NCBI GenBank assembly: GCA_944324395.1
Contig: CALUWC010000002.1
Span: forward strand, 1 to 64,000
Length of the DNA: 64,000 nt
Direction: 5' to 3'
Origin: Candidatus Gastranaerophilales bacterium
GTDB taxonomy: Bacteria; Cyanobacteriota; Vampirovibrionia; Gastranaerophilales; Gastranaerophilaceae
Shown: piece by piece, positions 18,334 to 60,609 of the stretch
How positions within the stretch are numbered: the first letter of the stretch is position 1
Layout: each line of letters starts with the position of its first letter
Translations under genes and position numbers: made by a program
Notes under the pieces: model-generated
The model's input: only the letters and a program-made list of their open reading frames with translations
What the model was told of the DNA's origin: nothing
Databases searched by the model: none

Positions 18334-19173
18334 CTAAGAACTGCTTACCATCTGCATAGCTTGTTGTAATAATTCTTTATTAGAAGATATCAATTTATTA
18401 ACAACTTCCATTTGAACTTTTGCCATTTGATAATATGAAATATTTCCCTTAAAATCGGCATTAGAAAGTTCCAATAATCCGGAACGAATTTCTCCGCATC
18501 CTAACACAGGCTTTCCGGATTCTTCGGTTTCTAAAAACCAGCCGTCTTTATATTCGTACAAACCTGCAGAATTATGAAAATTTCTTGTTGTAATTCTATA
18601 TAAAGGTACTACTTTTTTCCCGCTTTCCGCTTTACCAACAATTGTACCGTCATTTTTGATTTCATATTCATCATATTTACCAAGATATTTACCATTATTC
18701 GGGTCAATCCATAATTTAATATTTGTTGTAGGAATATCTAAAGCACCGCCTTTTAATGCAGTTTCCTGATATAAATCTGCACTTATCGGTTTGGTACCCT
18801 GCATAATTTCACCTTTATCATTAAGAATATACCCCTGAACAGTATTACCGTTACTTGCACGATAAACACCCTCTCCATCAAAAGTAAACTCGCCTAAACG
18901 GGTGTAAACACTTTTCCCTTCAGGAGTTTTTGTGAGAAAGAAACCTTTTCCTTCCAAAAATACATTATCTTTTGAAGTTCCGGGAGTAGATTTTCCCTGT
19001 CCCATATTTTTTGTATAATCGTCATTTATTGCACCATTCAAAAACGTTTTAAAATTCACCTGCTTTTCTTTAAAGCCGGGGGTATAAACGTTTGTCATAT
19101 TATCAGCAATTACGTCCATCCAGTTGACCGTCGCATATTGCGTGTTTATAGCTGTAATAAATGCGTCATTCAT
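18334..19173 (-). CDS. Flagellar hook/basal-body protein (FlgE/FlgG family)
   Basis: A 279-residue axial flagellar protein. The N-terminus carries the rod/hook signature (TVNWMDVIADNMTNVYTPGFK) and the C-terminus the matching helix (LSNADFKGNISYYQMAKVQM and onward). Both ends pair to build the rod or hook. The length is near FlgG (~260) and shorter than many hook proteins; the middle domain is divergent, so I do not choose between FlgE, FlgF and FlgG. It is exported by the flagellar type III apparatus, with no signal peptide. Last gene of the fliJ-fliK-like operon; its Shine-Dalgarno overlaps the upstream stop. Confidence 0.85.
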   Translation of the reverse strand: MNDAFITAINTQYATVNWMDVIADNMTNVYTPGFKEKQVNFKTFLNGAINDDYTKNMGQGKSTPGTSKDNVFLEGKGFFLTKTPEGKSVYTRLGEFTFDGEGVYRASNGNTVQGYILNDKGEIMQGTKPISADLYQETALKGGALDIPTTNIKLWIDPNNGKYLGKYDEYEIKNDGTIVGKAESGKKVVPLYRITTRNFHNSAGLYEYKDGWFLETEESGKPVLGCGEIRSGLLELSNADFKGNISYYQMAKVQMEVVNKLISSNKELLQQAMQMVSSS

Positions 19174-19188
19174 AGAAGTTCTCTCTCC

Positions 19189-20088
19189 TTATTTATTATT
19201 ATTTCTTCTTTCTTTTTGTTGTTTGCTTCCTCTGTTTGAATATGACAAATCAGAATACGGAAGATCATTTTGAGCAAATGTTGCTTTTAAAGAATCAATA
19301 TTAGTTCTCAAATACTGTTCAACAGCCTTATCTCCAGGAATAAAGTTTGCTGAAATGACACCGTCTTTATTTACCCGCAAAATAACAGATACATTCTGGT
19401 CAAAATCAATTCTGACAGGCTGGTTTGTTTCTCTGGAATTAGAAAGGGCATTAAGCAATGTCTGCGAAACCTGCATATTCTGTTTTACTTCTCTTGCCTC
19501 AGCTCCGTTATCAACCATAGTTTGAGCTTGAGCTGTTATATTTTGCATTGAAACATCATTTTTCTGAGTCAAATTGATGAAAAAGTCTGCATCACTTTGA
19601 GTCATATTTATGCTGTTTGAAAAATCTAAGCCGCCTTTACCCAAAGCTCTGCTTGCAGATGAAACATCCGAAACTGCAGCCAGTGAAGAATTTGCATTGT
19701 TTGTATTCATCATTTGCTGAATATCATTTGATAACATTGAATTTACATCATTCATTGACATTGATGCAAATTTGCTGTAGTCAATATTACCGTCCAAAGT
19801 CATATTCTGTTGTAACAAATCATCATTTTCTGATTTACCGGTGTCAGTTTTTGAATCTGTATTTTTATCCTGCTTATTATCTACAGCTTCAACTTTATTA
19901 TCTGATTTTACAGATTCTTCTTTTTCTGTTTTTGTTTCATTTTCAGAAGAAACCTTATCCATTTCTTTTTTAAAAGAAGAATCCGCTGATGATTTTTTTG
20001 CACTTTCAGAATTTGCAGTATTTGAAACCTGAGCAGCTGATGAAGCTGAACTTGCTGATGATGATGAAGTTGTTGCGTTAATACTCAT
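19189..20088 (-). CDS. FliK-like flagellar hook-length control protein
   Basis: A 299-residue protein. Residues 1-100 are disordered and extremely Ser/Asp/Lys-rich. The C-terminal part (about 225-285, PVRIDFDQNVSVILRVNKDG then ISANFIPGDKAVEQYLRTNI) matches the pattern of the FliK C-terminal domain, which contacts FlhB to switch export specificity. Function therefore follows from position and this pattern rather than strong identity. The start lies one base after the fliJ stop. It is shorter than typical FliK. Confidence 0.75.
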   Translation of the reverse strand: MSINATTSSSSASSASSAAQVSNTANSESAKKSSADSSFKKEMDKVSSENETKTEKEESVKSDNKVEAVDNKQDKNTDSKTDTGKSENDDLLQQNMTLDGNIDYSKFASMSMNDVNSMLSNDIQQMMNTNNANSSLAAVSDVSSASRALGKGGLDFSNSINMTQSDADFFINLTQKNDVSMQNITAQAQTMVDNGAEAREVKQNMQVSQTLLNALSNSRETNQPVRIDFDQNVSVILRVNKDGVISANFIPGDKAVEQYLRTNIDSLKATFAQNDLPYSDLSYSNRGSKQQKERRNNNK

Positions 20089-20089
20089 T

Positions 20090-20578
20090 TTAATTACCTT
20101 CTGTTTCTTTCAAATGTTTTAATATATCTATTTGTTCTTCGGCATTTCGTTCCTGACTTTGCTTAAAGAATCTGGTTACACCAAGTTCGGAAAACTGTTT
20201 CAATTCTGCTGCTTTTTCTTCCGCAATATAAATTTCTTTGTTTTTTTCTTTGTGCTTCTCAAGAACCTTAACTGCCTGCTCGCATTTTACAAGTTTTGCA
20301 AGCTCTATATCCAATTTTTGTTGAAGATCCTGCCTCACTGCTTCTAATTCTTCGGCTTTTTTCCATAGATGCCTTAAATAATTATCGTACGACTCATACA
20401 TCATAGGATCAGCCTGACGCATACCTTCTTTTGTGTCCAGAATATCCTGATTATTTTTTTTGATATCCTGTTCCGCTTGATACACTGCCTGCTGTGCTCT
20501 TTGAACCCTCATTAACTGTTCTTCTTTCTGGTTAATACGAAAGTCCAAAATCTTCTGCAATCTGTATCGAAACGGCAT
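20090..20578 (-). CDS. fliJ: Flagellar export chaperone-like protein FliJ
   Basis: A 162-residue, highly charged, all-helical coiled-coil protein. The start FRYRLQKILDFRINQKEEQL is characteristic of FliJ, the stalk protein of the flagellar export ATPase complex. The rest is a long antiparallel coiled coil. First gene of the three-gene flagellar operon. The ribosome site is weak (GAAAGAG). No flagellar regulator or export gate gene lies in the window. Confidence 0.85.
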   Translation of the reverse strand: MPFRYRLQKILDFRINQKEEQLMRVQRAQQAVYQAEQDIKKNNQDILDTKEGMRQADPMMYESYDNYLRHLWKKAEELEAVRQDLQQKLDIELAKLVKCEQAVKVLEKHKEKNKEIYIAEEKAAELKQFSELGVTRFFKQSQERNAEEQIDILKHLKETEGN

Positions 20579-24789: not shown

Positions 24790-24827
24790 AGTATACAAGA
24801 TAGATTGTTTTTAAATGGAGTTTGAGA

Positions 24828-26540
24828 ATGAGATTATACCTATTTAAACGAGCCTATACTCTTGCAGAGATAATGCTTGTACTTCTGATTTTATCAATTA
24901 TATTTGCTGCATTTGCACCAATATTTACAAAAAGAAAAATATCTTCATATACAAGCAAATATAATGTCTGGGAATACGCTGACAGAGTATCTTTAGATGC
25001 ATACTATGAATCAGGTGATCCTTCTTTTACCGGCGAATTGTTCTTTGGACTTACACCAAAGGGTAAAAGTGATATTACAACAACATTCGCACCTGTTTCA
25101 AAAGTAGTTATCAGGTCAGGAGAAGTTACTTCACAAGCTGCAAAACAACGCCAGATCCAATTTAGATACGGCAGAACTTCTACTACAGATATAGGTGACT
25201 TTGCAGGTTCCTGGCTTATGGACGGAGATAACGCTTTATTAGGCGGTCAATATCGAAATTTAGCAACATCACAGGATGATGGGGCAAGATATAATGTCGG
25301 TATCGGATATCTGGCAATGAGCAAGCTGCAAAACGGACAAAGTAACACTGCTGTCGGGTATAATGCTCTCGGAAACGCTACAACAGCATCAAAAAACGTA
25401 GCTATCGGTTATAATGCCGGTGCAACACTCACAACAAATGAATCTAATACATTTGCAGGAGCCGGTGCCGGATACAGAAAAACAGGTAAAGGCAATACAA
25501 TTATAGGTTATAATGCCGGTGCAAACAGTGCTAACGGTTCAAATAGCTTATATATTGGTTATTATGCCGGATACAATGCCGGCGGAAATTACAATACGGC
25601 AATTGGGTATAATACTATGCAAAAGGTATCCGGGCGTTATAATATCGCACTTGGTGCCAATGCTTTACAAAATGTAACTTCAGGAAATTATAACGTTGCA
25701 ATAGGTGCCAATGCTTGCTCTGAGGTAACTTCAGGTTCTTACAAAACTTGTATTGGTGCTAACTCCGGACCACATAGCGGAACTTCTGCAGAAAACTATT
25801 TAAGTGGCAGAACTAATTCGAACCAGGTTACATATATCGGTGGAAAACCATACAATTATGGCGGTGATGCAGTTTTAGAAATTCATAATGTTGAAACCCG
25901 AGAAAGTGGAATCATAAAGCACGCAAAAGCATCTACAGATTCTAGTGTTACAACAGTAGTTAATGGTAATTTAATAGTTCGCGGCAGACCATTTTTCACT
26001 GTTGGAAACACTCTTTACCATTTCCATGATCAGAATCCGCTAACAAAACAAGCAGGAAGCCGATTATACGGCTCCGGGAATGCTCTGAATAGTAAATATT
26101 ATAAAGCATGTATTTCCAGCCAAAAAGGTTATAGTTTTGGTTCTTGTGTTTCTTTATCTTCCTCTGACAGAAGATTAAAAAATATCACATCAAGAAATAA
26201 TGACGGTATAGATGAAATTCTTAAATTAAAAGTATATAATTATACATTCAAAGATGACCCGGATAAAAAACCGCATGTTGGTGTAATTGCTCAGGATTTG
26301 CAAAAAGTATTTCCTAATGCAGTTGTCCAAGGCTCTGACGGATATTTAAGAATTCGCTGGGACGATATGTTCTATGCTGCAATCAATGCAATAAAAGAGC
26401 TTGATAAAAAAATTGTTGCTATCGCAAAACGAATAACAGATGTTGAAGCTAAAATTGCAGATCTTGAAAAAGAAAATGCAACATTAAAATCTCAAGTTGA
26501 CAGTATTGCAATGAGAATAAATAAATTGAAAGCACAATAA
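24828..26540 (+). CDS. Prepilin-anchored repeat fibre with S74 self-cleaving chaperone (paralogue 1)
   Basis: A 570-residue three-part protein. (1) Residues 1-9 form a short basic leader, cut by prepilin peptidase before YTLAE (Glu at mature position 5), followed by the pilin-type helix to about residue 32. (2) About 140-320 is a repeat array of the form xNxAIGYNAxxxVTSGxYN, like YadA-head or tail-fibre solenoids, followed by the conserved linker VVNGNLIVRG. (3) A peptidase S74 domain starts at Ser446 (SDRRLKN, predicted self-cleavage before Ser with the Lys as partner) and ends in a coiled coil. The -1 residue is Ala, not the usual Gly. Start chosen by GGAG spacing. Surface fibre is the likely role; not a characterised protein to my knowledge. 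Confidence 0.85.
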   Translation: MRLYLFKRAYTLAEIMLVLLILSIIFAAFAPIFTKRKISSYTSKYNVWEYADRVSLDAYYESGDPSFTGELFFGLTPKGKSDITTTFAPVSKVVIRSGEVTSQAAKQRQIQFRYGRTSTTDIGDFAGSWLMDGDNALLGGQYRNLATSQDDGARYNVGIGYLAMSKLQNGQSNTAVGYNALGNATTASKNVAIGYNAGATLTTNESNTFAGAGAGYRKTGKGNTIIGYNAGANSANGSNSLYIGYYAGYNAGGNYNTAIGYNTMQKVSGRYNIALGANALQNVTSGNYNVAIGANACSEVTSGSYKTCIGANSGPHSGTSAENYLSGRTNSNQVTYIGGKPYNYGGDAVLEIHNVETRESGIIKHAKASTDSSVTTVVNGNLIVRGRPFFTVGNTLYHFHDQNPLTKQAGSRLYGSGNALNSKYYKACISSQKGYSFGSCVSLSSSDRRLKNITSRNNDGIDEILKLKVYNYTFKDDPDKKPHVGVIAQDLQKVFPNAVVQGSDGYLRIRWDDMFYAAINAIKELDKKIVAIAKRITDVEAKIADLEKENATLKSQVDSIAMRINKLKAQ

Positions 26541-28089: not shown

Positions 28090-30174
28090 TTATTTTCTTT
28101 TAGCCTCGATTTGCTCTAATTCACCGGCTAATTTGTCTAATCTTGCATTTAACTCGGCATTATCATTTTTCAATGCAGATAATCTCTGTCTATCATTAGC
28201 AATTTTAGAAGCTAATTTTTCAATTTTAGTATTCAATTCTTTAATAGAATTGATAGCCGCATAGAACATTTCGTCCCAGCGAATCATATAATAGCCATGA
28301 CTATCTTTAAATACGGCAGACGGGAATACTTTTTTCAAGTCTTGAGCAATAACACCGACACGCGGAGTCTTATTCGGATCATTTTTGAATGTAAAGTTAT
28401 AAACATTCAAATTTCTGATTTCATTCAAACCGGCAGTAAATTTCTCACCGACATTTTTCAATCTGATATCTGATTTCAAATTCGGACAGCAAGAATTCTG
28501 CCCTTTCATATGTGCATAAGGTAAGTCTGTGAATTTTGTAGCTGCATTGCCTCCTTCCGGAGTACGTGCTAAACAAATATTCTTCCCAGTAGAACCATCA
28601 GTATAACAAGACTGATTACTGCTGTTTCCATTTGCATCACAACCTGTAGTCCCATTAGAATTATTTGTTTTAGTAGTCCAGTCATAAGATGTACTTACAG
28701 TGTAAGAACCCAGATTATAATCCGTAGTTGTAGCACCGCCGCCTACAACGGTACAAACACAACCTGGAGCTATATCTTTGAATACATGCGTCTTACAATC
28801 ACCAGCACAATCGTCCCTAGATTGTCCAGTTCTTTGTGTTCCATCATAACCGGAAAAACCTTTTAAGGAGCCTGATTCATTTAATCTGAATAAAACAAGC
28901 CCTTTTGGAATTCTGGAAACTGCCGGAAAATTCTTCTCTCCATTAAAATGTCTCTGCCTGATTAAAGGAAATTCTAAATATGTCTGCCCTCTCACAATCA
29001 AGTTTCCGTTTATTACCACAGAAGAATTACCGGCATTAGTAATAGGACTTGCATTGCTGTTTGTACTATTGATATTATGTACCTCTAAAACAGCTCCTGG
29101 CTTAACATCTCCACCCATATTGCTGGTAGGAATAGAACCTATGAAAACTCTTTCATCACTTCCCGAAAATAACTTATCCGAAGGCTTGAAATTAGTTCCC
29201 TCACCTTCTTTTACACTACCAGAGAACGAACCAATACATGTTTTATTTGAACCATTTGTCAGTTGTAAACATGAATTATCACCAAAAGCTGTATTGTTAC
29301 TGCCTGATGTTAATTTTGACATAGAATTATAACCAATAGCAGTATTATTGTTGCCTGAAGACAAAACTTTCAAAGCATAATTTCCGGCAGCAGTGTTATA
29401 ACTGCCGGTGGATTTTTGTAAAGCAAAGTTACCGACTGCAGTATTACCGGTACCACCGTTACCTGCAGAATAACCAACTATAGTATTCTTATTAGCCGTA
29501 GCATTATTAAGAGAATGGCTACCTATAACAGTGTTATAACTGCCATTTTGCACTTTAGTACCCGAATCAACACCAACAACAGTGTTATAAGAACCGCTTT
29601 TCATAGCTGTTAATGCATTTGTACCCACAGCAGTATTACCGATACCGCTGGTCAAAGCAGATAATGACGCAGAACCAAACGAAGTATTAGCCCTTGCGGT
29701 ATCAGAAATAGATTCATACTTACCGCCTACTAACATATTTTGATTACCTGCAAATAACGCACCAACTATAGAACCGGCTGTAGAATTGTTACTGGTTGCA
29801 TATCTGAATTGCAATTGGTTTTGTAAACTGTTGCCATAAGTACCACCAAGTTTATTCGCTCTTAAAATAAGTTTTGAATATAACGGAGTAGTTTCATTAT
29901 AAGCCGGATTTTTTACATTAGAAGCATTCATAACATCAAGCTTATTGGCAGGAGAAATACCGACAAAAGCCTGAGCTGTATGGGTCTTGCTTGGGACATC
30001 AAAATAAGCATCATTATTGTCATCCCCCGGAACAAATGTCCAAACCTCATCAGCAGAATAATTATCTGCTCTGCGCGTAAATACAGGAGCAAATGCAGCC
30101 ATTAATATTGATAATGTTAATAACAATATCATAACCTCTGCTAAAGTAAACGCTTTTAATTTATTAAATCTCAT
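28090..30174 (-). CDS. Prepilin-anchored repeat fibre with S74 self-cleaving chaperone (paralogue 2)
   Basis: A 694-residue paralogue. Leader of 8 residues, then KA|FTLAEVMILLLTLSILMAA (again Ala at -1 and Glu at +5). About residues 150-330 is the longest and most regular repeat array of the three, with units such as GSGNTAVGxNAL and GSYNTVIGxxSL. The linker VVINGNLIVRG follows. Unlike paralogue 1, a ~140-residue Cys-rich module (with DDCAGDCKTHVF, GCVCTVVGGG, SCCPN) precedes the S74 domain at Ser568 (SDIRLKN). The C-terminus is a coiled coil. ATG chosen six bases after GGAG; the ribosome site overlaps the upstream stop, so it is translated with paralogue 3. Confidence 0.85.
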   Translation of the reverse strand: MRFNKLKAFTLAEVMILLLTLSILMAAFAPVFTRRADNYSADEVWTFVPGDDNNDAYFDVPSKTHTAQAFVGISPANKLDVMNASNVKNPAYNETTPLYSKLILRANKLGGTYGNSLQNQLQFRYATSNNSTAGSIVGALFAGNQNMLVGGKYESISDTARANTSFGSASLSALTSGIGNTAVGTNALTAMKSGSYNTVVGVDSGTKVQNGSYNTVIGSHSLNNATANKNTIVGYSAGNGGTGNTAVGNFALQKSTGSYNTAAGNYALKVLSSGNNNTAIGYNSMSKLTSGSNNTAFGDNSCLQLTNGSNKTCIGSFSGSVKEGEGTNFKPSDKLFSGSDERVFIGSIPTSNMGGDVKPGAVLEVHNINSTNSNASPITNAGNSSVVINGNLIVRGQTYLEFPLIRQRHFNGEKNFPAVSRIPKGLVLFRLNESGSLKGFSGYDGTQRTGQSRDDCAGDCKTHVFKDIAPGCVCTVVGGGATTTDYNLGSYTVSTSYDWTTKTNNSNGTTGCDANGNSSNQSCYTDGSTGKNICLARTPEGGNAATKFTDLPYAHMKGQNSCCPNLKSDIRLKNVGEKFTAGLNEIRNLNVYNFTFKNDPNKTPRVGVIAQDLKKVFPSAVFKDSHGYYMIRWDEMFYAAINSIKELNTKIEKLASKIANDRQRLSALKNDNAELNARLDKLAGELEQIEAKRK

Positions 30175-30185
30175 ATTCGACTCCA

Positions 30186-32204
30186 TTATTTATTATTTTC
30201 AAGACTATCTAACTTTTCATTTAATTTGCTGATTCTATCTTTTATATTGTGCTGGGCATCAGCAACACTATCAGTATCTTGTTCAACAACCTGAAGATCA
30301 GCTGTGACAGCATTAACGTTTGCATTCAGTTCTTTTACGGAATTTATAACAGCAAAGAACATTTCATCCCAGCGAATATTCAAGTAGCCGTCTTTATCCT
30401 CACTAACTGAATCCGGAAATACTTTCTGTAAATCCTGAGCCATAACACCGACTTGAGCAAGAGCATCCTTATCAGCCTTAAATGTATAATTATAAGGAAC
30501 CAACATCATAATTTTTTCTAATGCCGCAACATTTTCAGAACCAATATTTTTCAATCTGGCATCTGATAAGTTTAAATTTGGACAATGAGAACCGCTACTG
30601 GTAGGATATTGGTCTCTATAGTCACCGCAATAGTAACTCCTACCTTTATCATCTGAATCCTGATAAGTCAACCAAGTCATAGAAACAGGATCTTTAGGTC
30701 TGGAATAGTCACTGCCGTTAAAAATCGTACCAACGGTTGCTCCAAAACCTCCGCTCCATAGTGTAAAGTAAATAGCACCAGCAAGAGGAGCTGCCAAACC
30801 ACCAGTAATAACAGTAACAAACCCGGCGACAAGACCTATAATAGCACCTAGAATAGTACCTAAAAACTTACACTTGGGAGAATCTCTAAACGTCTTGCGT
30901 CCAAAAGGACCGCAACGACGTCCGCATCTATCACCACCCGTTTCTCCGCCATTGAATAAGGATTGAGTCAAAGCAGGGTTGCCAGACGAAGCTATAAGCC
31001 TACCATCAGTAGAAGGAATAAATAAGTTACCTCTTACTACAAGATTAGAATTTAATAGAACTGTAGGACGAAGCTGAGGGCTAACTATTCCCGACAACAC
31101 ATCTGAATTAGGAATCATATTATGAACTTCCAGAACAGAACGTCCGCCAAAACCAACAGGAGATCCACCTAAGAAAATATGATCATACTTATCAGTTTCC
31201 AAAGAAGTCAAAGTACCGCCTGCACCTCTATTTTTAGCTGAGCCATAACCTAAACATGTTCTTCTTCCAGGATTTTTCAAATCCCCATTATATTGCATGG
31301 ATAAACAAGCTTCATAACCGGCAACTGAAAGATTTTTTGCCTCATGCTTGCCACCTACAAAAGAATCATAACCGGCAATTGTATTATTAGCAGCGGTTGT
31401 ACCATAATATGTAGAACCCAAAATTGTGTTATTTATTGATTTATCATGATTATCAAAACCGGCAAAGCCTGCAAAATAACCGGCAAAAACATTATCATTA
31501 CCTGATGATGAACTAATACCCAGAACATTTGAACCAATACCAACAGTATTAGAAATAGTAGCGGATTCAGCTCTGCCTGAGTTAGTTCCCATAAAGGTAT
31601 TTCTTCCGGCATGACTCATATATTGTCCGGAATTAGCACCAACTGCAACAATTTCACTGGGACTGCTGCCGCCTTGTTTGCCCATAACAGCATTTGAACC
31701 CAGAGCAAGCACAGATTCCGGGGTTAACGTCCTTGAAAAAGCTCCCATACCTGCTACAGTATTGTTACGTCCGCCTATAAAATAATTCTCATCAGGATTA
31801 GAACGAGTATCGATTTTTCCGCCCATCATTATATTCTTGCTTCCGTCCATAGAGAATACACCTGTAAACAAACCGTTGCCGGATCCGTAACGGAACTGAA
31901 TCATGTGCTGATTAGGACGAGTTTTTATGACCATTTTAGAATAAGGTTTAACATTACTTGCAATATTATCAGGACTAATTCCGACATACGCTGTAGATGT
32001 CTGTCCTGTAGTACCAGGATCATAAAATGCATCTTTCTGGTCGTTATTTGCAACAAAGCTCCAAACAGGTTCGTTTGCAATCGTATCACCCGAACGACGT
32101 TTCGTCATAATAGGAAGCAACGCAGCAAATAATATACCTATAATAACCATTACTATCAATAGTTCTGTAAGCGAAAAAGCTTTCTTAAATGTAATTGATT
32201 TCAT
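30186..32204 (-). CDS. Prepilin-anchored repeat fibre with S74 self-cleaving chaperone (paralogue 3)
   Basis: A 672-residue paralogue, first of a two-gene unit. Leader then KKA|FSLTELLIVMVIIGIL (Ala at -1). The repeats (about 150-340) are less regular, e.g. SEIVAVGANSGQYMSHAG and SNTVGIGSNVLG. The linker is VLLNSNLVVRG. A Cys-rich piece (DRCGRRCGPFG) is followed by a strongly hydrophobic, glycine-zipper-like stretch at about 447-497 (GTILGAIIGLVAGFVTVITG and more). The S74 domain begins at Ser547 (SDARLKN), with a C-terminal coiled coil. Start is ambiguous between two ATGs six bases apart; I chose the inner one because its leader length matches the paralogues. Confidence 0.82.
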   Translation of the reverse strand: MKSITFKKAFSLTELLIVMVIIGILFAALLPIMTKRRSGDTIANEPVWSFVANNDQKDAFYDPGTTGQTSTAYVGISPDNIASNVKPYSKMVIKTRPNQHMIQFRYGSGNGLFTGVFSMDGSKNIMMGGKIDTRSNPDENYFIGGRNNTVAGMGAFSRTLTPESVLALGSNAVMGKQGGSSPSEIVAVGANSGQYMSHAGRNTFMGTNSGRAESATISNTVGIGSNVLGISSSSGNDNVFAGYFAGFAGFDNHDKSINNTILGSTYYGTTAANNTIAGYDSFVGGKHEAKNLSVAGYEACLSMQYNGDLKNPGRRTCLGYGSAKNRGAGGTLTSLETDKYDHIFLGGSPVGFGGRSVLEVHNMIPNSDVLSGIVSPQLRPTVLLNSNLVVRGNLFIPSTDGRLIASSGNPALTQSLFNGGETGGDRCGRRCGPFGRKTFRDSPKCKFLGTILGAIIGLVAGFVTVITGGLAAPLAGAIYFTLWSGGFGATVGTIFNGSDYSRPKDPVSMTWLTYQDSDDKGRSYYCGDYRDQYPTSSGSHCPNLNLSDARLKNIGSENVAALEKIMMLVPYNYTFKADKDALAQVGVMAQDLQKVFPDSVSEDKDGYLNIRWDEMFFAVINSVKELNANVNAVTADLQVVEQDTDSVADAQHNIKDRISKLNEKLDSLENNK

Positions 32205-32351
32205 CCTCATCAAACTCCAAATATAATATTATATTTTCTATTATATCATATAATACCCGACATTTCAATAACCGATACGATTTGTAAACTAAAATAAACA
32301 ACATTTGTGTATTTTCTTCTGAAAATATAAATCTTATTCAATACACAAAAG

Positions 32352-47912: not shown

Positions 47913-48644
47913 ATGAAGAAGGAATATTCAAACGGATTTACCTTGGCAGAGGTACTAATAACACTTGGAATTATAGGAGTTGTTGCGGCAATAACAATTC
48001 CAGGATTAATGACGAAATTAAATAATATAAAACTCAAATCACAGTTTAAAGAAGCATATTCTCTATTAGCACAGGCTGTAAGAATGTATAATGAAGACTG
48101 CGAAAGAATAGAATACATAGCAAACTCAAACAATTACATATATAAATCATTTATGAAATACTTTACAGGAGTAACAGATTGCGGAGACACAGGAGGAGTA
48201 GCCGACGATTCAAAATTTTGTATAGTAAGGCAATCAAATGTAGATGATACTCCTAATACAGTGACAAATAAAGATTATGATTACAGTAATTATGCAAAGA
48301 ATGCAGAATTTATAACAACAAATTATTTGGATGACGGGCAATTTTTCCTCAATAACGGAATGCTTATAATGTTTGACCATAACCATGCTAACCCATTTAT
48401 AAGCATTGATATCAATGGGAAATTACACAAACCTAATGCCTGGGGTCATGATGTTTTTACATTTGAATTGATAATGAGTGATAAAGAAGGCGGTTACGAA
48501 CTCGTACCAATGGGAGCACCAAGAACAGTCTACGCAAATAAGTATGACAGCTATTGTTCGGAAACAAGTACTAATACAATGAACGGACTCACCTGTGCTT
48601 ATAAGGCCATGACTGTTGGAGATTATTTCAAAACTCTGCCATAA
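47913..48644 (+). CDS. Type IV pilin / type II secretion pseudopilin-like protein
   Basis: A 243-residue prepilin with a canonical cleavage site: leader MKKEYSNG, then FTLAEVLITLGIIGVVAAIT with Gly at -1 and Glu at +5. The globular part has four to six Cys residues (e.g. VTDCGDTGG, KFCIVRQ, SYCSETS, LTCAYKA) that may form disulfides. It fits the large class of minor-pilin or pseudopilin proteins. It sits alone beside its probable repressor, so it may be expressed only under certain conditions. The leader is only a few bases (TATAAT, nine bases, ATG), with no Shine-Dalgarno. Confidence 0.88.
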   Translation: MKKEYSNGFTLAEVLITLGIIGVVAAITIPGLMTKLNNIKLKSQFKEAYSLLAQAVRMYNEDCERIEYIANSNNYIYKSFMKYFTGVTDCGDTGGVADDSKFCIVRQSNVDDTPNTVTNKDYDYSNYAKNAEFITTNYLDDGQFFLNNGMLIMFDHNHANPFISIDINGKLHKPNAWGHDVFTFELIMSDKEGGYELVPMGAPRTVYANKYDSYCSETSTNTMNGLTCAYKAMTVGDYFKTLP

Positions 48645-56298: not shown

Positions 56299-57099
56299 TT
56301 AAAATCTTTTATAACTTATATTTCTATCACCAATTTTATCTTTAAGTTTTTTAAAACCTGCTCCGTAAAAATATCGCAGCTGTTCGGGGAAATGCTCATA
56401 AACATCAAGTAAATACATTTCATGCATAACAAATTCTTTCAAAAGATAAGAAATATCATCATTTTTAGACCAAACAATACTATTTTCAATTCTGCCGAAA
56501 ACAGATTCACAATTATCAGCAACAAGATAAATCAATCTGCTGCCTATATTCCGTTCAATCTCTCTTGCTCCGTCATGAGGATATACAGTTCCGTATATAG
56601 ACTTCAAATTATCATACCCGACAAATTTAATACTCACACCTCTGTCATAAGCCTGTGCAATTTCTTTTTCCAACTGATTATAATCAGCTGCCCAGATAAC
56701 AAGATAAATAGAGGTCTTAGAATTTCTGATAACCTCTTTGAGCTTTTCTAAAATATTGTCATATCCTGAAATAGTATGAATAGGTTCATTATAATCTTCC
56801 TTAACGTTGGGAAGTTTCTTTTCCAGAATATCAATGGTGGAATTTATTTTTCTTTTAAATCTTTGAGTAAGTTCTTTAGGAGAAATCGGGCTGAACTTTT
56901 GCGGCTTTTCATCATTTGAAAACACAAATCCCGAAGCAGTCATAGATTTCAAAGTGTCGTAAGCCCTTGACTGCGGAATATCTGCAATCTGCGAAACTTC
57001 ATATCCGGTTGCAGGATACTTCTTCAATAAAGCCAGATACACCTTGGCTTCATAAGAATTAAAGCCCAATTCTTTTAAATTCGCAATCAAATCATCCAT
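56299..57099 (-). CDS. TrmB-family transcriptional regulator
   Basis: A 266-residue regulator. The N-terminal winged helix (NLKELGFNSYEAKVYLALLK, then QIADIPQSRAYDTLKSMTAS) matches TrmB. The C-terminal ~150 residues carry the phospholipase-D-like TrmB sugar-binding type domain (SIYLVIWAADYNQLEKEIAQ, RGVSIKFVGYDN). TrmB proteins mostly sense sugars in archaea; bacterial members are less known. Possible targets here cannot be named. Start at MDDLIANL; TACAAT ends seven bases before it with no Shine-Dalgarno. Confidence 0.85.
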   Translation of the reverse strand: MDDLIANLKELGFNSYEAKVYLALLKKYPATGYEVSQIADIPQSRAYDTLKSMTASGFVFSNDEKPQKFSPISPKELTQRFKRKINSTIDILEKKLPNVKEDYNEPIHTISGYDNILEKLKEVIRNSKTSIYLVIWAADYNQLEKEIAQAYDRGVSIKFVGYDNLKSIYGTVYPHDGAREIERNIGSRLIYLVADNCESVFGRIENSIVWSKNDDISYLLKEFVMHEMYLLDVYEHFPEQLRYFYGAGFKKLKDKIGDRNISYKRF

Positions 57100-57106
57100 G
57101 ACAAGG

Positions 57107-57135
57107 ATTGTAACAGATTTAATAAACACTTGCAA
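57107..57135 (-). promoter_or_regulatory. Promoter of the TrmB-like gene, leaderless arrangement
   Basis: On the minus strand TTGCAA, 17 bases, TACAAT, then seven bases to the ATG. Confidence 0.6.
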
Positions 57136-57342: not shown

Positions 57343-57529
57343 AATATCTTAGCAAAACAAACGGAGTTAACAATTCTTAACACTTTAAAATATACGCTAT
57401 ATCTGTGTCTTAGGTATTAAGTATATAAAAAGTAAATATTTATTGTAAATTTTTAAATGCAAAAAACGTTTATAAAAACATAGTGAAATTAAATACAAGA
57501 TTTCTATAAGAAAAGAAAGGACAAGAAAG

Positions 57530-59716
57530 ATGGAACCAAACAGTGTGACAGTGAACGGACTAACGCTTAGCAGCGTTACTGATGTGCAAGCTGCATTGAA
57601 AGCCGGGAAAATTACTCAGGCACAAGCACAAGCTTTTGCTCTGCTATTCCCTCCAAAGGAAGAAAATAAAGGCGGAACAGAAGTTGAACATGCAGAAGAT
57701 CAGCCATTAACAGAAGAACAACAGACAGCAAAAAATGATGCCCGTCAAAAGGAATTAGAAGAAATTGCTGCAATGAAAGAAAAATCTAAAAATGCATCAG
57801 ATGCAGGCAGATTTGCAACAGATGTTGACGCATTAATTGAGCAACAAAAACTATATGACACAAAAGAAGAAGCACAGGAAAGATTTGAACTTGGTGACAA
57901 ATTCAAAGATAAACGAGCTGCTAAAAAGATTGCAAAAGCTGCAAGACAAAATGTTGAAAGTATGACCGGCTTTAAATCATTAGAAAAGGTATATACAAAT
58001 AAAGAAGAATATAAAGCAGCTGTTGAAAAAGCAAAACAAGACGGCACCTGGGATAAAGACAATCCTAAATACACATTGCTTGACGGCAAACCGTTAGAAG
58101 GTGCAAGACACTTGCAAGAAGCAGCAGCTAAAAAAGTTGAAGATGCATTAAAATCTTATAGACTGAATGAAGAAATATACAACAATGCAAAAACACCAGA
58201 AGATAAACAGGCTGCATTTGAAATTATGACACAAGCCGCAACAGAAATCAGCAAGAATTATTTGGCTTCTCAAATGTTTGATAAAGACGGCAATATTAAT
58301 ACAGAAGTTTATCAAAAAGCAATGTTACAGTATGCAGGATCTGACTTCAAAGGTAATATTGATGAACGTAAAGTATTAGCAAAAGATGCTGATGTTAAAA
58401 AACGTCATACCGATAATATGTTAGAAGCAGCAGGACTTGATGCAGAAAAAGACTACACTTGGGCAATGAGAGCCGGAGTATTGGCAGCCGGTCTTGGATC
58501 AGGTGCTTTAGTTGGATTGCTAGGCGGAGGTGCAGTAGCAACAGCAGTAGCAACAGCAGTTTCAACATCTCACTCATCTGCAACTGCAGAACTTAATGTA
58601 AGTATTCCAACTCCTGGTGGTGAATATAACGCATTTATAACTACAACAGTTGAAAATACTTCAACTAATGTAGTAACTCAAACTGCTTCAAAGGCTATTA
58701 GTAATGGTACCAAAGCTCTTAATGGCTTATTAGGTGCAGCTATTCCAAGTATTCTTGCTGCATTATCAATGAAAGATAACGGCGGTAAAGACGTATTCAA
58801 CGGTGCAGCTGTTATGGATGTCTTAGAAAATCCTGATCAAGTAAAAGGCAGACAAAATAAAGCTATTATGAACAAACTTGTTGATATGGAAATCACAGGT
58901 GACCCTGTCAGAGATAAAATTATCAAAGCTGCAATATTAACTGAAGCAATGAGTGATAAGACAGGCAAAAAAGTCAATACAAGAGAACTTACAGCAGCGT
59001 TTGCCGCAGTTGATTACTTGAAAGACCATCCTGAACTTGTAACTCCGGAGAAAAATGAAGAAGTAACCACTCCTCCTTCAACTACACCTCCGGCACCTCA
59101 GCCGACAACAACTGAAGTAGACGTATTTGATATTACAGGCAACGGTTTCACCGATGAAAACGGAGGTGCTGTAGCTGTAATTGAAAACGGAAAAACTAAA
59201 GAAGCTCAAGGTTCAAGAGGTCATGCAAGAGATATCGAATTACTAAAAAAACGTAATGCTCCTGTAGATTCAAATGACCCGAATGCAAAAGCTCAATACG
59301 TAATTGCAAATGAAAAAGGTGAAATATCAGTAACCGGTAATTACGAATCACCTGATACAATAACAATTAAAGATAACACTAACAACAAGGTAAACAGCTA
59401 CGAGTACAGAAAACTTACAGATGCTGAAATTGCAGCAGGCAAAACAAAAGACGGACAAACAATTTCCGGACTTGAAGGACGCCAGGGACCGTTCTATGTA
59501 CTTGTAAGTGCAACCGATGCTAAAGGTTCATTGAAAACTAAACACCTTGAGGTATTCCAGTTGAACCTTGTTCCGAAAGAAGAAGTCATCGAAGAAAAAG
59601 ATGAAAAAGGCAACATTGTAAGAACAACAATCCACCGTTATGATTACCAATTAGAACAATACAAAGGTATGAGCGGTTCCGGAACAAGCAGTATGTTCTG
59701 GTGGAGAAGAAAATAA
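57530..59716 (+). CDS. Large hypothetical protein with glycine-zipper segment, 728 aa
   Basis: No family recognised. Parts seen: a SHOCT-like start (VQAALKAGKITQAQAQAFAL, 19-38), a charged helical region (60-300), a Gly/Ala-rich hydrophobic segment at 311-344 (AGVLAAGLGSGALVGLLGGG), a Thr/Val-rich region, a Pro/Thr linker (about 510-535), and a beta-rich C-terminal domain (TDENGGAVAVIENGKTKEAQ, then YVLVSATDAKGSLKTKHLEV) ending in WWRRK. No signal peptide. The segment could insert in a membrane or form oligomers. A GAAAGGA ribosome site precedes the ATG. A strong terminator follows. Confidence 0.75.
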   Translation: MEPNSVTVNGLTLSSVTDVQAALKAGKITQAQAQAFALLFPPKEENKGGTEVEHAEDQPLTEEQQTAKNDARQKELEEIAAMKEKSKNASDAGRFATDVDALIEQQKLYDTKEEAQERFELGDKFKDKRAAKKIAKAARQNVESMTGFKSLEKVYTNKEEYKAAVEKAKQDGTWDKDNPKYTLLDGKPLEGARHLQEAAAKKVEDALKSYRLNEEIYNNAKTPEDKQAAFEIMTQAATEISKNYLASQMFDKDGNINTEVYQKAMLQYAGSDFKGNIDERKVLAKDADVKKRHTDNMLEAAGLDAEKDYTWAMRAGVLAAGLGSGALVGLLGGGAVATAVATAVSTSHSSATAELNVSIPTPGGEYNAFITTTVENTSTNVVTQTASKAISNGTKALNGLLGAAIPSILAALSMKDNGGKDVFNGAAVMDVLENPDQVKGRQNKAIMNKLVDMEITGDPVRDKIIKAAILTEAMSDKTGKKVNTRELTAAFAAVDYLKDHPELVTPEKNEEVTTPPSTTPPAPQPTTTEVDVFDITGNGFTDENGGAVAVIENGKTKEAQGSRGHARDIELLKKRNAPVDSNDPNAKAQYVIANEKGEISVTGNYESPDTITIKDNTNNKVNSYEYRKLTDAEIAAGKTKDGQTISGLEGRQGPFYVLVSATDAKGSLKTKHLEVFQLNLVPKEEVIEEKDEKGNIVRTTIHRYDYQLEQYKGMSGSGTSSMFWWRRK

Positions 59717-59763
59717 AACCGGACACAGCTGATTGAACAATAGTAAATATATGTTCATAAAGG

Positions 59764-59801
59764 ATATAGGATACAGACAAAAACTGTATCCTATATTTTT
59801 T
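59764..59801. terminator. Bidirectional terminator
   Basis: Thirteen-bp stem ATATAGGATACAG/CTGTATCCTATAT with a seven-base loop and T tract, overlapping the stop codon of ispE. Confidence 0.9.
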
Positions 59802-60609
59802 CAACTTCTTTTACTCCTAAATCTGTTGATTTTAAACCGTTTATTACAAGAAAACCGGCTTCGGGGAAAAATTCTTCTTCCAGTGAATAATAAGCAGAAC
59901 CGGAACCTGTCATAACAGATGACGGATATTTATTTTTTATAAATTGCAGCTGAGGATAATCATCAATCACAGCCCATTCTAAATCATTTACAAAAGTTTT
60001 ACGCAATTCTGTTGAAATATTATTTTCTATTTTGTAAGAAAACTTTGTATAAGCTTCTTTTGCGGATATGCCGAAATTTAACGGCTTAATTAAATTTACA
60101 TCCAAATCTTCAAACTCCAGAGGCTCAATAATTTCACCTCTGCCTTTTGCAAGCAGTCTGCCGCCTTTTAAACAAACATTCAAATCAGAACCTAACCTTG
60201 CACATAACTTATGTAAGTCACATTCGTCTAACCGATTGCCAAACAGTTTATTAAGCCCGAATATCATGCCTGCAGCATCTGTACTGCCTCCTGCCAGACC
60301 GGCAGAAATCGGAATATTTTTTTCAATAAAAACTTCGATTTTATAACCTGATAGTCCACACTCAACCAAAAACGATTTTGCAGCCTTATAGACAAGATTT
60401 GACTCACTATAAGGTATTTCGCTGCTGTTTCCAGACAATAAAATTAAATTATCATCTGCTTCACTAATACTAATAGTCAAATAATCAAACAAATCAATAG
60501 TCTGCATAATACTTTCTATATTATGAAACCCGTCATCACGTTTATTTAAAACTCTAAGACTTAAATTAATTTTTGCGGGGCATTGAACTTTTATTGAATT
60601 ATTTTCCAT
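59791..60609 (-). CDS. ispE: 4-diphosphocytidyl-2-C-methylerythritol kinase
   Basis: A 272-residue GHMP kinase of the MEP isoprenoid pathway. Substrate motif PAKINLSLRVLNKRDDGFH, ATP loop PISAGLAGGSTDAAGMI, and the late GSGSAYYSL. It overlaps rsmA by 11 bases and is translated with it; ksgA-ispE pairs are seen in several phyla. No other MEP gene is in the window. Confidence 0.94.
   Translation of the reverse strand: MENNSIKVQCPAKINLSLRVLNKRDDGFHNIESIMQTIDLFDYLTISISEADDNLILLSGNSSEIPYSESNLVYKAAKSFLVECGLSGYKIEVFIEKNIPISAGLAGGSTDAAGMIFGLNKLFGNRLDECDLHKLCARLGSDLNVCLKGGRLLAKGRGEIIEPLEFEDLDVNLIKPLNFGISAKEAYTKFSYKIENNISTELRKTFVNDLEWAVIDDYPQLQFIKNKYPSSVMTGSGSAYYSLEEEFFPEAGFLVINGLKSTDLGVKEVEKI

What the first reader, a model, noticed from the sequence alone, without database searches (positions are those of the whole stretch)
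57530..59716. 728-residue protein of unknown family with a glycine-zipper helix
No family recognised, yet a strong ribosome site and terminator suggest real expression. The layout (charged helical head, hydrophobic Gly/Ala zipper, Pro/Thr linker, beta-domain ending in WWRRK) without signal peptide resembles toxins or structural proteins exported by a non-Sec route.
Basis: partly seen in the sequence, partly recalled or inferred. Interest (0 to 1): 0.5.

Follow-up and report, generated by a model that had tools for sequence, protein, structure and literature searches.

The report
Gut-bacterium protein with swappable tail
This is a real, unstudied protein of non-photosynthetic gut cyanobacteria: its body is conserved and often sits at one chromosomal spot while its tail, in some relatives a cell-wall-binding LysM module, is exchanged again and again, and it carries no ordinary export signal.

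Summary
The ORF is real, 728 aa, exactly as stated, and under purifying selection (dN/dS 0.15), in a Gastranaerophilales MAG. It belongs to an unnamed family matched in 44 of 46 same-genus genomes and 99 of 286 of the order, often beside ispE. No Pfam match for the protein and no clear PDB or fold match were found.

Shown: the body (helical head, two hydrophobic Gly/Ala segments, helical domain, Pro/Thr linker) is conserved while the C-terminal module is exchanged. Two tandem copies in one genome share 456 of 500 body residues but 43 of 227 after that. On a tree of 39 bodies the tail type needs 20 changes. LysM is over Pfam's cut-off in 6 of 20 relatives scanned singly; the window has an unrelated beta module. 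Only 74 bp separate the gene from convergent ispE.

Inferred: an exported, wall- or glycan-facing protein. None of 63 members has a hydrophobic N-terminus. The genome keeps fliMN, O, P, Q, R, a rod/hook gene and FliJ- and FliK-like genes, but no flagellin was found: a filament-less flagellar exporter is a candidate route, unproven.

The parts
57517..57521 (+). Shine-Dalgarno-like AAGGA, 8 nt before ATG
   Evidence: sequence
57530..59716 (+). 728-aa gene
   Evidence: dN/dS 0.148; family match in 44 of 46 genus genomes
57530..57649 (+). residues 1-40: small N-terminal beta-hairpin plus helices; no hydrophobic signal
   Evidence: AF2. A SHOCT-like match in 2 of 26 members, best E 0.0034, is weak
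57713..58429 (+). residues 62-300: charged helical head
   Evidence: AF2 (101-300 confident; 61-100 low)
58463..58564 (+). residues 312-345: hydrophobic Gly/Ala segment 1 (GxxxG at 321, 325, 329)
   Evidence: AF2 unresolved there; relative L147 has a weak Gly-zipper match, E 0.00054, below cut-off
58715..58771 (+). residues 396-414: hydrophobic segment 2
   Evidence: at least two such segments in 59 of 62 members tested
58784..59029 (+). residues 419-500: conserved helical domain
59042..59137 (+). residues 505-536: Pro/Thr linker, the exchange boundary
   Evidence: identity falls here
59198..59713 (+). residues 557-728: exchangeable C-terminal beta module, type A
   Evidence: alignment A3; AF2 pLDDT 85.8, pTM 0.82; clusters
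59759..59801 (+). terminator-like stem-loop, overlapping the ispE 3' end
59791..60609 (-). ispE, convergent neighbour marking the locus
   Evidence: TIGR00154 E 1.8e-53, over cut-off
56299..57135 (-). TrmB-like regulator, other conserved neighbour
   Evidence: TrmB model E 3.8e-25, below its cut-off; neighbour in 17 of 43 genus loci
18334..19173 (-). FlgE/F/G rod/hook-family protein (candidate export system)
   Evidence: TIGR03506 E 1.8e-32 over cut-off; PF22692 E 4e-10
19189..20088 (-). FliK-like (Flg_hook) protein, match below cut-off
   Evidence: PF02120 E 2.6e-5; no NCBIfam match
20090..20578 (-). FliJ-like protein, matches below cut-off
   Evidence: TIGR02473 E 4.8e-9; PF02050 E 0.0085

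Best explanation
A lineage-specific, modular, probably exported envelope protein of Gastranaerophilales. SHOWN: a conserved body, often kept at one locus, carries C-terminal modules that are exchanged at the Pro/Thr linker. Some modules are LysM; others are linked to LysM-bearing ones only by profile comparison; the window has an unrelated beta module, type A. SHOWN by a simple hydrophobicity test: no Sec-type signal in 63 members. INFERRED: the module is a wall- or glycan-contacting tip and the linker a spacer. INFERRED: the two hydrophobic segments form a membrane-associating hairpin, which would leave head and tip on the same side of a membrane, so a wall-contacting tip would need the whole protein exported without Sec. 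INFERRED, weakest step: the route is the flagellar-type III export apparatus that this genome keeps while no flagellin was found.
For: Family and locus: 44 of 46 genus genomes; 99 of 286 in the order; ispE within 400 bp in 19 of 43 genus loci, convergent in 14, and within 100 bp, convergent, in 13 of 19 loci of other genera. Exchange: tandem pair in G009, 456/500 then 43/227 identical residues; window against L041, 388/500 then 37/228; window against L043 the reverse, 137/500 then 139/228; 20 changes of tail type on a 39-row tree, minimum 6, shuffled mean 22.5. LysM: over Pfam's cut-off in 6 of 20 relatives scanned singly, below it in 3 more. No signal: 0 of 63. Two hydrophobic segments: 59 of 62. 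Exporter: FliP E 1.7e-68, FliMN, FliO, FliQ, FliR, FlgE/F/G and FliJ-like in the window, flagellin in 0 of 34 good-quality genus genomes and 1 of 46 overall. Lysozyme and L,D-transpeptidase proteins of the genome show no signal as read here; a LysM amidase may lack one too, but its start is uncertain.
Against: No export or binding is measured. The window's own module is not a LysM, and 11 of 20 relatives scanned singly show no LysM at E 0.1; among 26 members only 2 matched LysM. The wall-facing reading therefore rests on a minority of clear cases. The FHIPEP profile found only the cytosolic part of FlhA, so the membrane gate may be missing or lost in an assembly gap. FlhB, FliF and FliI were not searched. 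AF2 does not resolve the hydrophobic region, and those segments are only weakly hydrophobic. FliP was searched in the own genome only, so co-occurrence is untested. LysM domains also occur in cytoplasmic proteins (recalled).
Confidence: 0.35

Rival explanations
1. Contact-type polymorphic toxin: the body delivers, and the exchanged C-terminus is a toxin or other effector.
For: Conserved body, Pro linker and freely exchanged C-terminus; an ADP-ribosyltransferase-like ORF elsewhere in the genome (weak).
Against: Several modules are LysM (6 of 20 scanned over the cut-off). Only 74 bp lie between the stop and the ispE stop, so no immunity gene fits here. No toxin family was found in the window protein.
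Confidence: 0.13
2. Membrane-anchored protein inserted by Sec/YidC through an internal signal anchor, with a periplasmic wall-binding tip; no special export route.
For: Internal hydrophobic segments. Another protein of the same genome, L071:4128-5297, has by eye a head, one Gly-rich hydrophobic segment and a Pro linker, with a LysM match below cut-off at its end.
Against: 59 of 62 members have at least two segments, and two spanning segments would put head and tip on the same side. Uncalibrated insertion sums are unfavourable in all 63 members.
Confidence: 0.25
3. Cytoplasmic scaffold or structural protein; the tails bind something inside the cell.
For: No signal peptide; charged helical head; many tails without a LysM match.
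Against: Rapid tail exchange is typical of surface-exposed or interacting parts (established knowledge); LysM mostly binds wall glycans (established knowledge).
Confidence: 0.23

Closest known systems
Polymorphic toxin systems (C-terminal exchange)
   Same: Conserved N-terminal body, linker, exchangeable C-terminus
   Different: Modules include LysM and an unassigned beta domain; no immunity gene fits beside the window gene; a housekeeping locus; no known trafficking domain
LysM wall-binding proteins (PF01476)
   Same: C-terminal LysM over the curated cut-off in 6 of 20 relatives scanned singly
   Different: The window protein itself has no LysM; no signal peptide; a lineage-specific body
Flagellar type III export without a filament (Lysobacter enzymogenes OH11, PMC7277350, abstract read; Buchnera basal bodies, PMC8109811, search listing only)
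   Same: Export genes kept where no flagellin was found
   Different: Here only a candidate exporter; the transmembrane part of FlhA was not found; substrates unknown
Glycine-zipper envelope proteins (PF13441 and related)
   Same: Gly/Ala-rich hydrophobic segments; one relative, L147, matches weakly (E 0.00054, below cut-off)
   Different: The window protein has no Pfam match

Membership tests
Polymorphic toxin system | Exchangeable C-terminal module on a conserved body | tested here: met
Polymorphic toxin system | Immunity gene directly downstream | tested here: not met
   74 bp to convergent ispE in the window; convergent ispE within 300 bp in 14 of 43 genus loci and 13 of 19 other loci
Polymorphic toxin system | Recognisable toxin family in the window protein | tested here: not met
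   No Pfam family at E 10
Polymorphic toxin system | Toxin-like fold of the C-module | tested here: inconclusive
   No clear match, best E 0.31 and Z 3.7
LysM wall-binding protein | LysM domain in the window protein | tested here: not met
   type A profile matches other tail clusters at most 4.7%
LysM wall-binding protein | LysM domain in homologues | tested here: met
   6 of 20 scanned singly over cut-off, 3 below, 11 none
LysM wall-binding protein | Binds peptidoglycan or chitin | not testable with these tools
   needs a binding assay
Flagellar type III export substrate | No Sec signal peptide | tested here: met
   0 of 63 with a hydrophobic N-terminus; no dedicated signal-peptide predictor was available
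Flagellar type III export substrate | Export core (FliP, FliQ, FliR) in the genome | tested here: met
Flagellar type III export substrate | Full FlhA gate with membrane part | tested here: not met
   FHIPEP matches only positions 308-654
Flagellar type III export substrate | N-terminus directs export | not testable with these tools
   needs an export assay
Flagellar type III export substrate | FlhB, FliF, FliI present | not tested

The most novel reading that the evidence does not exclude
Gastranaerophilales without flagellin keep a flagellar rod/hook-and-export apparatus as a dedicated secretion system, and its cargo includes this tail-swapping protein and other signal-less wall-active proteins of the genome.
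Probability: 0.2. Interest if true: 0.82.

Novelty: new variant of a known kind. Interest (0 to 1): 0.55.

Why it matters
A near-universal protein of a mostly uncultured gut genus exchanges its tip almost independently of the descent of its body, often at one fixed locus, which suggests recognition of, or escape from, something variable such as wall types, host glycans, phages or competitors. If its exporter is a filament-less flagellar apparatus, this would offer a reason why some Gastranaerophilales keep only partial flagellar gene sets, as Soo et al. 2014 reported (PMC4040986, passages read).

Tried and rejected
Known family: Pfam, NCBIfam, PHROGs. The only NCBIfam hit, chloramphenicol acetyltransferase at E 0.11, is chance. 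PHROGs gave nothing for the window protein; its hits came from other members of A1, best to transglycosylase and endolysin families. Solved structures by sequence: best E 0.01 with A2 (a Huntingtin fusion, in the linker region) and 0.12 with A3. Fold searches: full model best E 0.41; C-module best E 0.31 and best Z 3.7, rmsd 4.3 over 80 residues. None is meaningful, and none shows that the fold is new.

Phage or plasmid origin: no match in phages or plasmids; none in viral contigs for the whole protein or for one type-A module, both searches limited to close relatives.

Contractile injection system: no match to one tail-sheath profile. Type IV secretion: no match to one VirB4-type profile.

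FHIPEP first looked like a full export gate, but the ORFs hold only the cytosolic FlhA part.

That most tails are LysM: I first thought so. A recheck of nine LysM-like-cluster members and one type-B member found only one LysM match, below cut-off, so I lowered the claim and the confidence of the best explanation from 0.40 to 0.35 and of the novel case from 0.22 to 0.20, and shifted two rivals slightly.

Literature searches for this family or exporter: Gastranaerophilales with LysM (1 paper, unrelated by its abstract), Gastranaerophilales with flagellar and type III (unrelated by its abstract), LysM with type III secretion and 'without signal peptide' (unrelated by title), Melainabacteria with flagella and secretion (17 papers, 12 listed, 3 searched for passages), non-flagellated type III export (340 papers, 12 listed, 1 abstract read).

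Rows dropped: L033 (same record as L116, judged from contig length and coordinates), L052 and L059 (fragments) before clustering; L160, where no ORF matched, from then on; L037 and L124 before profile comparison; L037, L047, L048 from the tree and signal tests because they lack the body; L163 also.

Full report
WHAT IS THERE. The ORF at 57530-59716 (+) encodes 728 residues without a stop. It has an AAGGA site 8 nt upstream and an 18-pair terminator-like stem at 59759-59801 that also overlaps the end of the convergent ispE. Against its nearest relative L033, dN/dS is 0.148 over 724 codons and below 0.28 in each of six segments. The gene is real and constrained.

WHERE IT COMES FROM. The genome is 1.89 Mb in 25 contigs. 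One of four records found with this protein is titled Candidatus Gastranaerophilales.

THE FAMILY. With the single sequence, 22 of 59 relatives matched, all in the same genus. With a 26-row profile, 44 of 46 genomes of the genus matched, the own genome included. With a 41-row profile, 99 of 286 genomes of the order and 18 of 50 genera matched; every match listed is in the same taxonomic family, and none of the 22 genomes of other families (their number, a draw of the same size) appears among them. The neighbour ispE is confirmed by its NCBIfam model. Of 43 genus loci with a family ORF, ispE lies within 400 bp in 19, convergent in 14 and on the same strand in 5; the TrmB-like gene is the immediate neighbour in 17. 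Of 20 stretches fetched from other genera, 19 gave a family ORF, and in 13 of these 19 a convergent ispE lies within 100 bp. I then looked beside ispE in 20 genomes where the profile had found nothing, viewing only the nearest convergent ORF: 5 hold an ORF of the same layout by eye (L169, L170, L172, L174, L187), one stretch was cut by a contig end, and the other 14 showed none that I recognised. So the family is wider than the profile hits but not shown to be universal. No match was found in phages, plasmids or viral contigs.

ARCHITECTURE. The AlphaFold2 model of the whole protein has mean pLDDT 69.3 and pTM 0.50. It is confident between about 101 and 300, for 421-470 and 481-500, and for most of 591-720, low for 41-100, and unresolved for 311-418. 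At least two hydrophobic segments between residue 100 and the linker occur in 59 of 62 members tested, at least one in 61. They are only moderately hydrophobic, and a simple insertion sum was unfavourable in all 63 members. No member of 63 has a hydrophobic stretch in its first 60 residues by the threshold used; start codons were trimmed by rule in some rows. One relative, L147, has a weak Gly-zipper match (E 0.00054, below cut-off).

MODULE EXCHANGE, THE MAIN RESULT. The C-termini of 66 proteins fall into ten single-linkage BLAST clusters: a LysM-like one of 20, type B 14, type A 13 (the window's), canonical LysM 6, and smaller ones of 3, 3, 2, 2, 2 and 1. In genome G009 two tandem copies have 456 of 500 body residues identical and 43 of 227 after that; window against L041 gives 388/500 then 37/228; window against L043 gives the reverse, 137/500 then 139/228. 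On DNA the drop falls near nt 1500-1560, at the linker. On a tree of 39 genus bodies the tail type needs 20 changes; the minimum is 6, shuffled labels need 22.5 on average, and 18 of 200 shuffles were as low. Type A alone needs 7, all forced by starred branches. Two rows had very long branches (L049, L124), and the tree is a quick one. The tail is therefore nearly independent of the body's descent. Type A also ends two proteins that lack the body (L047, L048); L047 begins with a LysM-like stretch by eye. In the own genome type A occurs once; the only other match is 36 residues at E 0.033.

WHAT THE TAILS ARE. LysM is the only domain recognised over a cut-off. Of 20 relatives scanned singly, 6 pass Pfam's LysM cut-off (five of the six canonical-LysM cluster, and L125 of the LysM-like cluster), 3 fall below it (L187, L119, L121) and 11 show none. 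Among the 26 members of A1 only 2 matched LysM at E 0.1. Profile comparison links the LysM-like cluster with type B (94.6%), cluster 5 (93.3%) and cluster 7 (86.6%), and type B with cluster 8 (93.5%); its link to the canonical LysM cluster was weak (11%, E 0.0028). So a common LysM ancestry of these tails is likely for some and unproven for the rest. Type A matches no other cluster (at most 4.7%).

THE TYPE-A MODULE. Alone it folds with pLDDT 85.8 and pTM 0.82 as a beta-rich domain. Foldseek's best E is 0.31 and the best Z on a second look is 3.7. Its fold is unassigned; this does not show that it is new.

HOW IT MIGHT WORK. LysM binds wall glycans (established knowledge). If the two segments form a hairpin, head and tail lie on one side of the membrane, so a wall-contacting tail implies export of the whole chain without Sec. 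A candidate route exists. The genome has FliP (E 1.7e-68), FliMN, FliO, FliQ and FliR in one cluster. The window itself holds a FlgE/F/G-family gene over its cut-off and FliJ- and FliK-like genes below theirs. Flagellin was found in 1 of 46 genus genomes, a draft with 6% contamination, and in 0 of 34 good-quality ones. Against this, the only FlhA matches are cytosolic parts, and FlhB, FliF and FliI were not searched. Di Rienzi et al. 2013 called the group flagellated (PMC3787301, passages); Soo et al. 2014 found complete sets in only three of nine Gastranaerophilales genomes (PMC4040986, passages); a termite-gut genome had more flagellar genes and was called likely motile (PMC5877343, passages). 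A non-flagellated Lysobacter keeps a working flagellar exporter (PMC7277350, abstract), so the idea has a precedent.

WHY NOT A TOXIN. The exchange pattern resembles polymorphic toxins, but only 74 bp separate the stop codon from that of ispE, so no immunity gene fits, and the only tail domain recognised is LysM. It works like a module-swapping surface protein and is not a member of a known toxin system by the tests made.

VERDICT. An ordinary-looking unknown ORF turns out to be a lineage-specific family with well-supported tail exchange. Its location, ligand and exporter remain inference.

Noticed in passing
window 18334-20578 (-): FlgE/F/G-family, FliK-like and FliJ-like genes in a row, in a genome where no flagellin was found.
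   Followed up: partly
L189:8532-12291 (G000 C9): Cluster of fliMN-like, fliO, fliP, fliQ, fliR: export core in a genome where no flagellin was found.
   Followed up: partly
L107:1228-2709 and L108:7146-8036: Two proteins with only the cytosolic FlhA/FHIPEP part; the membrane part was not found in the genome.
   Followed up: partly
L069:8816-14776 (G000 C3): 1986-aa protein with EF-hand-like start (below cut-off), LysM, a Gly/Ala-rich hydrophobic region and a long C-terminus that looked ADP-ribosyltransferase-like by eye only.
   Followed up: no
L068:5868-9192, L072:4129-5361: LysM phage-type lysozyme and L,D-transpeptidase without an obvious signal peptide, and a LysM amidase whose start is uncertain.
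   Followed up: partly
L072:6311-7003: Small ORF with a weak ADP-ribosyltransferase match (PF03496, E 0.0026, below cut-off).
   Followed up: no
L123, L163 and L160: Large ORFs related to one beside the L123 family member, whose start resembles a filamentous-haemagglutinin-type adhesin by eye; L038 has a related partial ORF.
   Followed up: no
window 24822-26540, 28090-32213, 47913-48644: Proteins with prepilin-like N-termini; three of them end in tails that look like intramolecular chaperones (by eye).
   Followed up: no
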